Source: Alloprevotella sp.
Lineage (GTDB): Bacteria > Bacteroidota > Bacteroidia > Bacteroidales > Bacteroidaceae
Reading direction: 5' to 3'
DNA length: 64,000 nt
Assembly (NCBI GenBank): GCA_017471505.1
Contig: JAFUTC010000008.1
Coordinates: forward strand, 1 to 64,000
The notes beneath the pieces are model-generated. The model did no database searches, was not told the origin of the DNA, and saw nothing but the letters and a program-made list of their open reading frames with translations. Made by a program: the position numbers and the translations under genes. Of this stretch, positions 7,297-57,073 are shown in pieces; within the stretch, counting starts at the first letter, position 1, and the number at the start of each line of letters is the position of its first letter.

Positions 7297-8661
7297 TTAA
7301 AGCCCAGTAAGGTCAAACTTATATACTTTCTCTTCTGCCTGGGTTTGTTCGAAAAAGGTTATCATGTAGATGGGATAGTAAATAACTCTCCCCTTTGTCT
7401 GGACATTCTCCCCACAGAACACATAAGCCATTGGTACAGCATATTCTTCATTCTCCATCACGTTAGAAAGTGCATTATGCCGCTCATAGTCCTTACCTGA
7501 CTTGACCTCTATCGGCAGCATGTTACCAGCATACTCTACCACAAAGTCTAACTCTCCTTGTTTCTTGCTGTTGAAATAGTAAAGTGAATGTTGCTGTGCT
7601 TCAGAGAAACCATGAGCATACAGTTCTTGGGCAACAAGGTTTTCAAAAACAGAGCCAAAGTTGATGTTTGGATTCGGACTGAGCAATCTGGCTTGTATGT
7701 TTCCCCCGTACATAGCAGCAAGCAACCCTACATCGTTGAGAAAGAGTTTGAACAGATTTCGCTGCTTGTTCAATAGCAAAGGTACTCGTGGCTCCTCGAC
7801 ATTGTATGCAGGGATAGCCACCCCCGCATCCCTTAGCCATAAAAAACTGTCCTCGTATTTGCTGAATCGTGCCTTTTCGTTCAGCTCTTTGAGGATAAAG
7901 CGTTTGTTTTTTGCATTCAGTTCAGAGGGTATTAGGTCGTAGATTTCTTCTATCTGCAACTTATGGTCATGGTCGTATTGGGTGATATCCCTCTTGTAGG
8001 TGCGAATGATTCCGCGCTGTTCTTCATACACTCTGCGGAGATTGTTAGTGTCAAGGTACTTTTGAACAGCCGCGGGCATTCCACCGACGATAAGATATAG
8101 ACGAATGGCCTCCAACATTCTCTTGTGAATAAATTCATCAACAGGTCTCTTCTCCTCAAAACACGTTCGCAAATGGCTAATGACATCTATGCCAATACCA
8201 ATTGCCTCAAAGAACTCCATCAGGTCAAGAGGATACATTTCTATCTCATCCATGTACCCCACGGGGACACTACGCAGGTCATCCAACTCAACACCAAGTA
8301 AAGAGCCACTCATCACATACTTGTAACTGCCCTCGTCCACAAGGAACTTGATTGCTGTTACTATCTCCTTGCACTCCTGTACTTCATCGAAGAAAATCAA
8401 TGTTTTCCCGGGAACCAATGGCTTTTTAGTGAAGGCAGACAGTCGCAAAAGCAAATCTTTTGCTCCCTTCTGCTCACTGAACAGTTCAATGGCATCGGGC
8501 TGTTCTACGAAATTGATTTCAACAACATTGTCAAAACACTCCTTACCGACCTTCCTAATGGAAAAGGTCTTGCCAACTTGTCTGGCTCCTGTTACCAACA
8601 GAGAACGCCTGTCGTTGAGTATAAAGTTGCGTATTAGCTCGTCAGCTTTGCGTTTTACCAT
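7297..8661 (-). CDS. AAA ATPase with C-terminal DUF4143 domain
   Basis: 454 residues from the ATG at 8661, chosen because a -7 box sits 22 nt upstream; the longer frame to 8748 would start upstream of that promoter. The AAA_14 domain has Walker A TGARQVGKT near residue 28 and Walker B 'LIFFDEVQE' near 92. The C-terminal DUF4143 region ends in an endonuclease-like fold with the signature 'KKQGELDFVVEY...IEVKSG', which resembles PD-(D/E)XK (D...E-x-K). These proteins are abundant in Bacteroidota genomes and their substrate is unknown. It sits directly upstream of the primase-helicase (17 nt before that gene's GTG, 35 nt before its ATG), so the two may be one transcript. Confidence 0.85.
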   Translation of the reverse strand: MVKRKADELIRNFILNDRRSLLVTGARQVGKTFSIRKVGKECFDNVVEINFVEQPDAIELFSEQKGAKDLLLRLSAFTKKPLVPGKTLIFFDEVQECKEIVTAIKFLVDEGSYKYVMSGSLLGVELDDLRSVPVGYMDEIEMYPLDLMEFFEAIGIGIDVISHLRTCFEEKRPVDEFIHKRMLEAIRLYLIVGGMPAAVQKYLDTNNLRRVYEEQRGIIRTYKRDITQYDHDHKLQIEEIYDLIPSELNAKNKRFILKELNEKARFSKYEDSFLWLRDAGVAIPAYNVEEPRVPLLLNKQRNLFKLFLNDVGLLAAMYGGNIQARLLSPNPNINFGSVFENLVAQELYAHGFSEAQQHSLYYFNSKKQGELDFVVEYAGNMLPIEVKSGKDYERHNALSNVMENEEYAVPMAYVFCGENVQTKGRVIYYPIYMITFFEQTQAEEKVYKFDLTGL

Positions 8662-25023: not shown

Positions 25024-25140
25024 ATGCGTCTCTATAAGGGATGACGGATGAGATGGAGTAAAGTTACAGAAAAATGTGCGTTTTTTTTAATTTTTTCTTC
25101 CGATGCTTGGCTTGCACGGCTCCGGCGGGGTGGAAAACGG

Positions 25141-25236
25141 CATTATGGAACGGAAAATTCGCATTATGCGGCCGCGAAATTGGCTTATGGAAAATGAAAA
25201 TTGCATAATCCGATTTTGGCGTCGGATTATGCAATT
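25141..25236. repeat. 21-bp-period palindrome array A (5 units)
   Basis: Cores CATTAT, CATTAT, GCTTAT, CATAAT, GATTAT begin at 25141, 25162, 25183, 25204 and 25225, exactly 21 bp apart. The best units approach the palindrome ATTGCATWATGCAAT separated by 6 variable bases. The last two units form a perfect 13-bp hairpin (25201-25213 with 25222-25234, 8-nt loop) that starts 27 nt past the M16 stop codon and is followed by TTTTCATTTTCC on the minus strand. It could end that transcript. Confidence 0.85.
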
Positions 25237-47165: not shown

Positions 47166-47260
47166 ATTGCATAATCGGATTTCGCTGTCCGATTATGCAA
47201 TTTTTTTGTCGCATAATGCAATTCCGAAATTCCATTATGCAATCGGGCCATTGCATAATG
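47166..47260. repeat. 21-bp-period palindrome array B (5 units), first pair forming a terminator
   Basis: Cores CATAAT, GATTAT, CATAAT, CATTAT and CATAAT begin at 47170, 47191, 47212, 47233 and 47254, exactly 21 bp apart. The first two units make a perfect 14-bp hairpin (47166-47179 with 47188-47201, 8-nt loop), followed by a run of T to 47207. This is a good intrinsic terminator 33 nt past the phosphatase stop. Confidence 0.9.
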
Positions 47261-47481
47261 TTCCACGGCAAAAGGTGCTATAGTAGGCATCTGTGGGCTT
47301 GTCTTTGGAAAATATTGAAACGTGAAACAATCAAAAAGTTTTCTCTTTTCGACAAGTTTTGTAATCGGATTTTTGAAAAAGTTTTCCAAAACAATTTGCT
47401 ATATTATTAAATCTCAGCGGATTAACATTATTTAACACGAAAAAAGTTGTCCAAAATGATAATCGTATAGTGGCGGCGAAT

Positions 47482-50617: not shown

Positions 50618-51106
50618 ATGGATAAGATTGAACCGCTGGATCTCAAGATTCTCAGCATTATCTCCAAGAATGCCCGTATTCCGTTCAAGGATGTGGCAGA
50701 AAAGTGCAACGTGAGCCGTGCCGCCGTCCATCAGCACGTTCAGAAAATGATAGAGGACGGCATCATCGAAGGCTCGGGCTATCATGTCAACCCGCGGGCC
50801 ATAGGCTACGGAACCAGTTCGTATATCGGCATCACGCTGGAACGCGGTTCGCTCTACAAAGAAGTATCGAAACAGCTGGCCGAACTGCCCGAGGTGGTCG
50901 AATGTCACTTGGTCACGGGCGAATATACCTTGCTCATCAAGATACAGTGCTACAACAACGAGCATCTGATGACCCTTCTGAACGAAAAGATACAGGCCAT
51001 CGACGGCATCCTGTCGACGACGACGCTCATCTCGCTCGAGCAGACCATCTACCGCACGCTGCACATTCCCGAGGTAGAGATGCCGGTGCGCAAACATAGC
51101 CGGTAG
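50618..51106 (+). CDS. Lrp/AsnC family transcriptional regulator
   Basis: 162 residues, the usual length. The N-terminal winged helix spans about 5-60 (KIEPLDLKILSIISKNARIP, then the recognition helix region VSRAAVHQHVQKM). The C-terminal RAM domain (about 68-150) binds an amino acid and forms dimers that assemble into octamers. It probably responds to amino-acid levels; targets unknown. Monocistronic. Confidence 0.95.
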   Translation: MDKIEPLDLKILSIISKNARIPFKDVAEKCNVSRAAVHQHVQKMIEDGIIEGSGYHVNPRAIGYGTSSYIGITLERGSLYKEVSKQLAELPEVVECHLVTGEYTLLIKIQCYNNEHLMTLLNEKIQAIDGILSTTTLISLEQTIYRTLHIPEVEMPVRKHSR

Positions 51107-54925: not shown

Positions 54926-55480
54926 TTAGAGACCCAGTTTCTTGAGGCCTTTGTTTACGCCTTCGTTCACTTTCTCAGCAGCCTTCTCGGAAGCCTTGTT
55001 AACGGCTTCGTTGGCAGCCTGAGTAGCGGCTTCCTTCACGGCTTCCTTGGCGGCTTCGCCTTCAGCCTTCAGTTCTTCCTTGGCACCCTCGACGGCAGCG
55101 TTGGCATTGTCGGCTGCGTTCTCCACAGCGGCTTCGCCGTTGCCAGTGAGTTTGTTTACGAAGTTGGTGATGGTTTCGCCACCTACGTTGCCAGCCACTT
55201 TCTCGACAGCCTCTTTCAGCGTAACGTCGCCAGCGATAACGTCCTTGATAATCTGGGTGTACTGGTTCAGGGCAGTAGAGTCGCCGGCCTGAGTCAGTTC
55301 TTCAATCTTGGCCTGAGCCTCGCTTATGAGGGTAGCAATCTTCTCGGGATTGTCCACATTAGCCTTCAGGGAGTCAACCAAAGCGTTGGCTGCTTCTTCG
55401 GGGTTCACGGCTTTGTCGCTATTGCAGGCAGCGAACGAAACAGTTGCGAGAGCAACGAGAGCAAATACTAATTTTTTCAT
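54926..55480 (-). CDS. Small Ala-rich lipoprotein with amphipathic repeats
   Basis: 184 residues with a lipobox (FAAC at about 16-19). The first half (to about 100) is an ordinary acidic helical domain. From about 110 it is made of 11-residue-like Ala/Glu/Lys repeats (for example AVEGAKEELKAEGEAAKEAV) that would form a long amphipathic helix, as in LEA or apolipoprotein-type proteins. No known family is claimed. It probably coats or spans the periplasm as a helical rod; inference. A -7 box (TACTTTTG at 55585-55592) gives a leader of about 98 nt. Confidence 0.75.
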   Translation of the reverse strand: MKKLVFALVALATVSFAACNSDKAVNPEEAANALVDSLKANVDNPEKIATLISEAQAKIEELTQAGDSTALNQYTQIIKDVIAGDVTLKEAVEKVAGNVGGETITNFVNKLTGNGEAAVENAADNANAAVEGAKEELKAEGEAAKEAVKEAATQAANEAVNKASEKAAEKVNEGVNKGLKKLGL

Positions 55481-55592: not shown

Positions 55593-55652
55593 GGCGAATT
55601 TTCGTTCAATCCAAGATTTTTTTCAAAAAAATGCAGTCCGCCGTCCCGTTGT

Positions 55653-55793
55653 CATAATTCGTGGTGCCGGCGGCATAATGCGACGAAAAAATTGCATTAT
55701 GGAGCGGGCCGATTGTATAATTGAATCGTCGGATTCCATAATGCAATTCCAAGATTGTATAATGCCATTTTTCTGCGGCATTATGCAATGTGG
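55653..55793. repeat. 21-bp-period palindrome array C (7 units)
   Basis: Seven cores (CATAAT, CATAAT, CATTAT, TATAAT, CATAAT, TATAAT, CATTAT) begin at 55653, 55674, 55695, 55716, 55737, 55758 and 55779: six successive steps of exactly 21 bp. Several units extend towards the palindrome ATTGCATWATGCAAT. Units 3 and 5 pair as a 10-bp inverted repeat (GCATTATGGA with TCCATAATGC), and units 6 and 7 form a further 8-bp stem close to the sialidase 3' end. The 6-nt spacers are GC-rich and variable. Confidence 0.92.
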
Positions 55794-55828: not shown

Positions 55829-57073
55829 CTATCGTTTCACGTCGTAGGGCTCGAGCGAGTATTGTCCGTGGGTGATTTCCTCGAGCGTGAGCAGCCGGTA
55901 GGCAATCGTATAGTCGGTGCCGTGAGTCAGTTCCTCGAAGATGAAGGCAATGAGTCCGTTCTGTAGGGGCAGGATTTCGGAATAGGCCGAAGCCACTTGC
56001 GACACCTGGAAGCGGCCGTCCCAGTCGGCGGCAATGTCGGCCGGGTTGTCGAAGGTCGCGTCGAGGGCGAACTCCTTATAGTATATGCCCACGTTGCGGC
56101 GCTGCGGGCCGAAGGGCAGCGACTGCAGCAGCAGATAGACGGGTGTGCGGTCGGACTTGCGTAGGGCACGCACCAGTTCGACGCCTCCGTTGCATGCGTT
56201 GTCGAGGGCTGCGACGCCGCGGTTGGCGTGGTTGCTGAGCACAGGTTGCTGCCACGAGCCGGTGCCTGCCTTCACGTCGTCGTAGCGGAAGATGTTGTAG
56301 AAGCGTCCGCCGTCGGTGCGTGATGACAGTAGCAGGTTGCCGTTGGGCAGCTCGACCACCTTGGGCTCGTCGCCTTTCGGGCAGGGGCGTGCCTGCGGTC
56401 CTCCGAGTGCGTGCCACGTGCGGCCGAAGTCGTCGGTATAGACCACCATGTTGCCTTCGCCCTTGGCCAGCAGTGGGGCATAGACGCGGCGGTGCGTGCC
56501 GATGCGGTAGCAATGGCTCTGATAGAGTTTGCCGCTGCCGAAGAAGAGGCCTTGCAGATTGTCATAGAGTCCGTAGATGGCCGGAGTGAGGTCGGTGGGC
56601 GCGCTCCAGGTGGTGCCGTTGTCGTGCGACAGGAACAGCGCCGTCTGCATACGGTGGTCGGCCCGCGTGTCGCCCCATGAGATGTTTCCCATCACCGAAA
56701 TCATCAACACGTCGGCACTCTCGTAGTCGGCCACCAGTGCTGCGTCGCCAAATCCGGCGGTGGCGGGGTCGGCCGCGCCACTTCCGAGCACGAGGGTGTG
56801 CTCCGGTCCGAAGGCAACGCCGTCGGGCGAGAGGCGATATTTGAGGTCGATGCGCGAACCGAAGAGTTCGGGGCTCCAGCCAATGTCTCCCTTGTTCCAG
56901 CGATAGTCCGACACGACGATGACCTGCCCGCTGTGGGCCTGCGCGATGGCGGGGATGCGATAGGGGATGCGGGCGTCGGCCGAGGTCGTAAAGAGGTCTT
57001 GGCGGGCGCTTTGGGCCATGGCCGACAGACTGAGGCTGAGGCCGAGGGCCACAAAGAGGTGGCGGAGGTTCAT
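55829..57073 (-). CDS. Exo-alpha-sialidase, secreted
   Basis: 414 residues with a signal peptide of about 20 residues (ending AMAQS). Sialidase hallmarks: the RIP motif YRIPAIAQ (about 37-44) supplying the first Arg; Asp-boxes SHDNGTTW (about 147) and TDDFGRTW (about 212); 'EPKVVELPNGNLLLSSR' with the catalytic Glu and second Arg; and ASAYSE with the nucleophile Tyr near 362. It removes terminal sialic acid from glycans. No sialate uptake or catabolism genes are visible in this window. Array C begins about 35 nt past its stop codon. Confidence 0.94.
   Translation of the reverse strand: MNLRHLFVALGLSLSLSAMAQSARQDLFTTSADARIPYRIPAIAQAHSGQVIVVSDYRWNKGDIGWSPELFGSRIDLKYRLSPDGVAFGPEHTLVLGSGAADPATAGFGDAALVADYESADVLMISVMGNISWGDTRADHRMQTALFLSHDNGTTWSAPTDLTPAIYGLYDNLQGLFFGSGKLYQSHCYRIGTHRRVYAPLLAKGEGNMVVYTDDFGRTWHALGGPQARPCPKGDEPKVVELPNGNLLLSSRTDGGRFYNIFRYDDVKAGTGSWQQPVLSNHANRGVAALDNACNGGVELVRALRKSDRTPVYLLLQSLPFGPQRRNVGIYYKEFALDATFDNPADIAADWDGRFQVSQVASAYSEILPLQNGLIAFIFEELTHGTDYTIAYRLLTLEEITHGQYSLEPYDVKR

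What the first reader, a model, noticed from the sequence alone, without database searches (positions are those of the whole stretch)
55653..55793. Array C: seven palindromic units at exactly 21-bp spacing in an intergenic region
Seen: cores of the form (C/T)ATWAT start at 55653 and repeat at six successive steps of exactly 21 bp. The fullest units approach the 15-bp palindrome ATTGCATWATGCAAT separated by 6 variable GC-rich bases. The same design recurs in three other intergenic regions of this window (25.14, 47.17, 50.44 kb) with the same 21-bp step, and I saw none in the AT-rich accessory part. Inference: 21 bp is two helical turns, so each dyad faces the same side of the DNA, as expected for cooperative binding of a dimeric protein or for chromosome architecture. 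Because only the core is conserved while spacing is rigid, selection seems to act on phase. I do not recognise a named element with this build.
Basis: partly seen in the sequence, partly recalled or inferred. Interest (0 to 1): 0.85.

Follow-up and report, generated by a model that had tools for sequence, protein, structure and literature searches.

The report
Evenly spaced arrays for HU-type proteins
The window carries arrays of short DNA palindromes set exactly two helix turns apart, of a class that in many gut bacteria looks like the private landing pads of HU-type chromosome proteins and that in this genome recurs about every ten thousand bases.

Summary
Array C is real: six clear 15-bp palindromes plus a core-only seventh, at exact 21-bp steps. 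Two of three sister arrays are real; 50.44 kb is not. In the half of this genome examined, units lie 21, 42, 63 and 84 bp apart and hardly otherwise, and the 55 arrays are intergenic, mostly five units. A second family (TTTCA-AGSCT-TGAAA, three units, same step) lies in gaps of the first; together they are evenly spaced, about 10 kb apart. One second-family array stands in the promoter of the only HU-domain/winged-helix gene found (Pfam HU-HIG). Of 73 such genes from many genomes, 45 carry a private 21-22-bp phased palindrome array upstream; 1 of 72 downstream; 0 of 25 HU genes lacking the winged helix. Motifs read from two operators predicted 319 and 236 genome-wide copies, a third only 34. 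At 3 of 5 shared sites, family A in this species faces family B in a sister species. Best reading: sequence-specific HU fusion proteins organise the chromosome through private, phased, evenly spaced arrays. No binding was shown, and the partner of the window's own family A was not found in the incomplete assembly.

The parts
55649..55789 (.). Array C: six clear 15-bp palindromic units (55670, 55691, 55712, 55733, 55754, 55775) plus a core-only unit at 55649, step exactly 21 bp, family A
25137..25235 (.). family A array, five units at 21-bp step, intergenic
47166..47264 (.). family A array, five units at 21-bp step, intergenic; the orthologous gap of sister species G002 holds a mixed A+B array
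55829..57073 (-). gene whose 3' end lies 39 bp from array C
   Evidence: ORF list and own gene call
54926..55480 (-). gene on whose 5' side array C lies (about 170 bp away)
   Evidence: ORF list and own gene call

Best explanation
The arrays are binding platforms of a family of DNA-binding proteins that fuse an HU domain to a C-terminal winged helix (HU-wHTH; Pfam HU-HIG). Each protein has its own palindrome, repeated 3 to 6 times at two helical turns (21 bp) in its own promoter, and in several genomes tested many further arrays of that motif lie between genes along the chromosome. Inferred mechanism: one dimer per palindrome, read by the winged helices; the 21-bp step places neighbours on one face so that HU domains bend or wrap the DNA into a particle of 3, 4 or 5 dimers; particles set about every 10 kb act as anchors or boundaries of nucleoid structure, and the array in the promoter closes a feedback loop. 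Shown by sequence: arrays, phase, unit number, promoter association, cognate motif match, even spacing in this genome, positional conservation with change of family. Inferred: binding, wrapping, the architectural role, and that family A of the window is served by a paralog missing from the assembly.
For: Phase and scale. Family B with the same step, and a mixed B+A array in phase at G000:C1:172028-172105. Even spacing of A+B: gap CV 0.48, 0.35, 0.47 on three contigs against 0.88, 0.85, 0.90 for random intergenic places, P<1e-4, <1e-4, 0.003. The only HU-wHTH found in G000 (C4:172988) and in G002 (C14:117267) lies just downstream of a family B array of that genome and reads away from it. 73 HU-wHTH genes: 45 with a palindrome triple of at least 16 of 21 at lag 21-22 upstream, 1 of 72 downstream, 0 of 25 HU genes without winged-helix match; 14 of 26 in relatives found by protein alone, G000 and G002 included. 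Operator motifs predicted dispersed copies: 319 in G036 (control 3, four other genomes 1-12), 236 in G035 (control 3, others 1-5), weaker 34 in G020 (control 4, others 7-26). Own-genome motif ranks first in 8 of 17 genomes, chance 1.7, P=1e-4. Shared gaps: 5 of 9 G000 arrays have an array in G002, 0 of 34 array-free gaps do, P=1.3e-4; in 3 of the 5, A faces B.
Against: No HU-wHTH gene with a family A operator was found: profiles find one winged helix of this kind in G000 and one in G002, both with family B operators; the assemblies are 77% and 58% complete. HU-wHTH was found in only 23 of 61 relatives, 2 of 24 outside the genus. In 4 of 17 array-bearing genomes (G094, G099, G101, G102) no examined operator matches the dispersed arrays (further paralogs by eye); G099 is one of the eight first ranks, with a negative score. 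20 of 73 HU-wHTH genes show no triple of at least 15 at lag 21-22 upstream; at that looser threshold 25 of 73 also show one at the other lags. Even spacing is not significant alone in G002 (P=0.13) nor by CV in RUG10906 (P=0.29, 0.42). In G036, 6 of 12 arrays with both neighbours known lie in divergent, promoter-bearing gaps. No binding data; no structure model was returned (pending).
Confidence: 0.65

Rival explanations
1. The arrays are operators of an ordinary regulon: the HU-wHTH proteins are transcription factors that repress or activate the genes beside each array.
For: Arrays stand in the promoters of HU-wHTH genes themselves; strong lone units stand in promoter regions; in G036 6 of 12 arrays with both neighbours known lie in divergent gaps.
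Against: In G000, 11 of 55 family A arrays lie in convergent and 9 in divergent gaps, although gaps of at least 120 bp number 22 convergent and 52 divergent (P=0.016); even spacing along the contigs; of the genes beside 113 arrays of other genomes, shared families are few: HU-wHTH in 4 loci, one family in 3, twelve pairs.
Confidence: 0.2
2. The arrays are copies of a non-autonomous mobile element (MITE or REP-like) that happens to carry phased repeats.
For: Many copies between genes; BrickBuilt of P. gingivalis is such an element with 23-nt repeats (passages of PMC4596501).
Against: Flanks of 35 five-unit arrays are 26% identical on average (maximum 49%), spacers 48% (maximum 83%); no conserved ends in the profiles; even spacing; same gaps in two species with different families.
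Confidence: 0.07
3. Family A of the window is bound by an unrelated protein, for example the Lrp/AsnC protein encoded at 50618-51106, and only family B belongs to HU-wHTH.
For: No HU-wHTH with a family A operator found; Lrp-type sites are also 15-bp palindromes (recalled); the gene at 50618-51106 is AsnC-type.
Against: A and B share step, phase within mixed arrays and places in orthologous gaps; the region before the AsnC gene is not a real array.
Confidence: 0.25
4. The arrays are a genome tag that lets HU-wHTH proteins tell self from foreign DNA, which would explain the fast change of motif between species.
For: Motifs differ between species and paralogs; a phage-like contig carries three copies of a unit type seen in RUG10906 and encodes an HU-like protein.
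Against: About one array per 10 kb is sparse for marking; a link to defence genes was not looked for.
Confidence: 0.1

Closest known systems
HU-HIG family (Pfam PF18291), HU domain fused to wHTH, Ig or glycine-rich part
   Same: the candidate binder of family B in G000 and G002 matches it
   Different: the family entry describes the protein; operators, phase, dispersed arrays and even spacing were not met in the listings of searches (open-licence papers only)
Noc/NBS, MatP/matS, SlmA/SBS chromosome-site systems (recalled)
   Same: a dedicated protein with many palindromic chromosomal sites and an organising role
   Different: as recalled, those sites stand alone with one consensus; here 3-6 phased units form one array, the motif differs between species of one genus, and arrays are evenly spaced near 10 kb
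Lrp/LrpC-type wrapping arrays (recalled)
   Same: 15-bp palindromes in phase, wrapping suggested
   Different: different protein family; no dispersed arrays of fixed unit number known to me
BrickBuilt MITE of Porphyromonas gingivalis
   Same: intergenic tandem repeats of about two turns in a Bacteroidales genome
   Different: 23-nt repeats, 1 to 22.8 copies, leader, tail and terminal inverted repeats, 19 elements (passages of PMC4596501)
REP/BIME (recalled)
   Same: many intergenic palindromes
   Different: as recalled, no 21-bp phase and no cognate promoter operator

Membership tests
HU-HIG (PF18291) for the candidate binder of family B | HU-type domain above the family cut-off | tested here: met
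   L224 protein 59.2 bits, cut-off 26.2; the cut-off also rings in 9 of 14 control genomes, E. coli among them, so it is not specific by itself
HU-HIG (PF18291) for the candidate binder of family B | C-terminal winged helix | tested here: met
   profile of 25 winged-helix parts finds G000:C4:173396-173587, E 3.9e-22; the profile includes this sequence
HU-HIG binder of family A | gene with a family A array in its promoter | tested here: not met
   none among the HU or winged-helix hits in G000 and G002; assemblies incomplete
MITE | conserved terminal inverted repeats and near-identical copies | tested here: not met
CRISPR | direct repeats of constant sequence with long unique spacers | tested here: not met
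   6-bp spacers, variable 15-bp palindromes
nucleoid-associated protein with dedicated sites | occupancy of the sites in the cell and effect on chromosome folding | not testable with these tools
   needs ChIP and contact maps
Lrp/AsnC operator | array before the AsnC-type gene | tested here: not met
   50.44-kb region scores 22, null mean 25

The most novel reading that the evidence does not exclude
A previously undescribed layer of chromosome organisation in Bacteroidales: HU/winged-helix proteins build particles of fixed size on private, phased palindrome arrays placed about every 10 kb, and protein and arrays are recoded together genome-wide while the places of the arrays stay put.
Probability: 0.45. 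Interest if true: 0.95.

Novelty: new variant of a known kind. Interest (0 to 1): 0.85.

Why it matters
It would give a large group of gut bacteria a sequence-specific chromosome-organising system whose spacing is close to the size recalled for supercoil domains. It makes the question of what sets roughly 10-kb domains directly testable, since candidate sites, protein and controls are named. The recoding of hundreds of sites together with the protein is itself an evolutionary puzzle, and the protein-site pairs offer a natural set for reading the DNA code of this winged helix.

Tried and rejected
Rejected: fourth array at 50.44 kb; Lrp/AsnC as binder on the strength of that region; mobile element; terminator: arrays occur in all orientations, and in 35 codirectional gaps 21 lie nearer the upstream stop, P=0.13. 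The viral hit L211 is two units in AT-rich DNA, taken as chance. Of the 113 stretches, four come from three non-Bacteroidales genomes (Pontiella, Kiritimatiellae, Spartobacteria); these have no HU-wHTH match and were left out of the motif-match test, which used the other 17 of 20 genomes. The 20 were picked by hand from about 40 assemblies. A blind palindrome scan of 20 stretches (20 kb or less, three of them wholly masked) from 20 other genomes of the genus showed no 21-bp phase in pairs; triples of at least 16 numbered 5 at lag 21 and 0-3 at other lags, none an array by eye. Only one of the two operator motifs of G036 and of G035 was tried genome-wide. The neighbour test used a crude length-based gene caller whose inside/outside labels are not used.

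Full report
OBSERVATION. Array C has seven cores at exact 21-bp steps; six units match the palindrome in at least 10 of 15 places (55670 to 55789), the one at 55649 is core-only. Its best three units score 39 of 45; 200 Markov copies of the window never exceed 29. The arrays at 25.14 and 47.17 kb pass the same test (36, 38); the one at 50.44 kb does not (22). In the whole assembly G000 (1.44 Mb, 77% complete) the motif occurs 324 times with up to two mismatches and its reversed control never.

ANATOMY. On 724 kb (340 of 352 kb of C1, 220 of 319 kb of C4, 164 of 180 kb of C5) I counted 55 arrays with at least two strong units, none inside a called gene; 35 have five units and 15 have six. Distances between strong units are multiples of 21 bp with very few exceptions. 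The 19 five-unit arrays of C1 show a common dyad: outer half-sites are the strongest, and spacers run from NNAAAA on the left to TTTTNN on the right. Weak in-phase cores extend beyond the strong units.

A SECOND FAMILY. A scan for palindrome triples of any sequence, with family A masked, found 18 triples at lag 21 and at most 1 at each of the 14 other lags from 16 to 30. These are family B: three units TTTCA-AGSCT-TGAAA. One array carries three B units and a perfect A unit in phase (C1:172028-172105). In the sister species G002 family B reads TTTCA-CASTG-TGAAA. B arrays (3 on C1, 7 on C4, none on C5) lie in gaps between A arrays; the union is evenly spaced: mean gaps 9.9, 11.7 and 10.4 kb, CV 0.48, 0.35, 0.47 against 0.88, 0.85, 0.90 for random intergenic places (10,000 draws each; P<1e-4, <1e-4, 0.003). 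Family A alone gave P 0.0004, 0.04 and 0.003. On 320 of 403 kb of G002 C15 the trend is the same but not significant (P=0.13).

THE PROTEIN. Among the genes beside these arrays the largest shared family was a 207-212-residue protein in four genomes (two of the four 89% identical), each time reading away from the array 84-159 bp upstream: an HU domain (PF18291, HU-HIG) with a C-terminal winged helix. A profile of these four found matches in 23 of 61 relatives, 2 of them among 24 genomes outside the genus. In G000 there is one, at C4:172988, some 125-145 bp downstream of a family B array and reading away from it; G002 has one with that species' own B units upstream. Relatives in other genomes of the genus have different units, again at 21 bp: for example TTACAAACTTTGTAA, AATTAAGGCTTAATT, AACCAAACTTTGGTT and TTGCAAGCCTTGCAA.

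STATISTICS. Over 73 HU-wHTH genes (identical proteins counted once, close relatives kept) with at least 300 bp of upstream DNA, 45 have a palindrome triple of at least 16 of 21 at lag 21-22 upstream, 4 at the eleven lags 16-19 and 24-30; downstream it is 1 of 72 and 3 of 72; of 25 HU genes without a winged-helix match none has one. At 15 of 21 the figures are 53 and 25 of 73 upstream, 2 and 12 of 72 downstream. Four of the 73 were found through their array and 43 come from genomes chosen for arrays; in the other 26, relatives found by protein alone with G000 and G002 among them, the count is 14. Of 20 array-bearing genomes picked from about 40, the 17 Bacteroidales ones have matches (G101 only weak) and the 3 others none. 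Scored with a motif model from dispersed arrays, the genome's own model ranks first for at least one operator in 8 of 17 genomes (chance 1.7, P=1e-4), in one of them, G099, with a negative score; 13 of 17 have an operator above 50 bits with their own model, 4 do not. Models of other genomes often also score above 50, since the TTYCA half-site is shared.

PREDICTIONS. The operator motif of G036 occurs 319 times in that genome (reversed control 3; 1 to 12 in four other genomes). In 355 kb of contigs known to hold hits, 18 arrays were found, 16 spanning four units, none in a gene, the 8 gaps all above 12.7 kb (no gap under 4 kb, P=0.14; none under 7 kb, P=0.02). Here 6 of 12 arrays with both neighbours known lie in divergent gaps. 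The motif of G035 occurs 236 times (control 3, others 1 to 5). For G020 the result is weaker: 34 (control 4, others 7 to 26, the 26 being mostly family B of G000). In RUG10906 the 11 full arrays on 330 kb all have four units and no gap is under 9.5 kb (P=0.02 for a limit set after seeing the gaps); the gap CV is not significant (P=0.29 and 0.42).

CONSERVATION. Among 43 gene adjacencies shared by the parts of G000 and G002 in hand, with a gap of at least 80 bp in either, 9 hold an array in G000, all on C5; 5 of these hold one in G002, against 0 of 34 without (P=1.3e-4). In three of the five a family A array faces a family B array. Two of the four misses carry weaker A units in G002. Place and phase are thus kept while the sequence family changes.

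MECHANISM. Inferred, not shown: a dimer reads each palindrome by its winged helices, the 21-bp step aligns HU domains on one face, and a fixed number of dimers forms one bent or wrapped particle; particles near every 10 kb organise the nucleoid. In G000 family A arrays are found in 11 convergent and 9 divergent gaps, while gaps of at least 120 bp number 22 and 52 (P=0.016), which speaks for structure rather than promoter control there; G036 does not show this. For the window's family A the partner protein is missing; I expect a paralog in the unassembled part, since several genomes carry two or more such genes with different operators.

LITERATURE. The listings of searches showed no paper on such arrays or operators; the library holds open-licence papers only. 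One search led to BrickBuilt, of which passages were read: a different element. A 2017 paper that described the HU-HIG clade is recalled and is not held.

Noticed in passing
L210:3802-3858 and 7300-7698: A phage-like contig carries three TTTCACGTCATGAAA units at 21 bp, a unit type also seen in the arrays of genome RUG10906, and encodes a protein that looks like an HU-HIG member (by eye).
   Followed up: partly
L121, L126 (units TTCCATCAAATGGAA and TTCCAGCTGCTGGAA types): In two genomes (G102, G094) TTCCA arrays lie beside the same 599-residue gene, and no examined HU-wHTH operator of these genomes matches their arrays.
   Followed up: partly
G000:C1 166206, 172091, 202710, 239122: Family A units scoring 14-15 of 15 stand without further strong family A units in promoter-side gaps; the one at 172091 ends a family B array.
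   Followed up: no
L272:499-890 (G000:C15): A second HU-HIG-like gene on a small contig has AAGTATACTT repeats about 22 bp apart upstream.
   Followed up: no
L227, L228, L231, L292, L330, L338: More distant HU-wHTH genes appear to use even palindromes at 22-23 bp instead of odd ones at 21 bp.
   Followed up: partly
window 1-25000: No family A array was found in the first 25 kb of the window.
   Followed up: no
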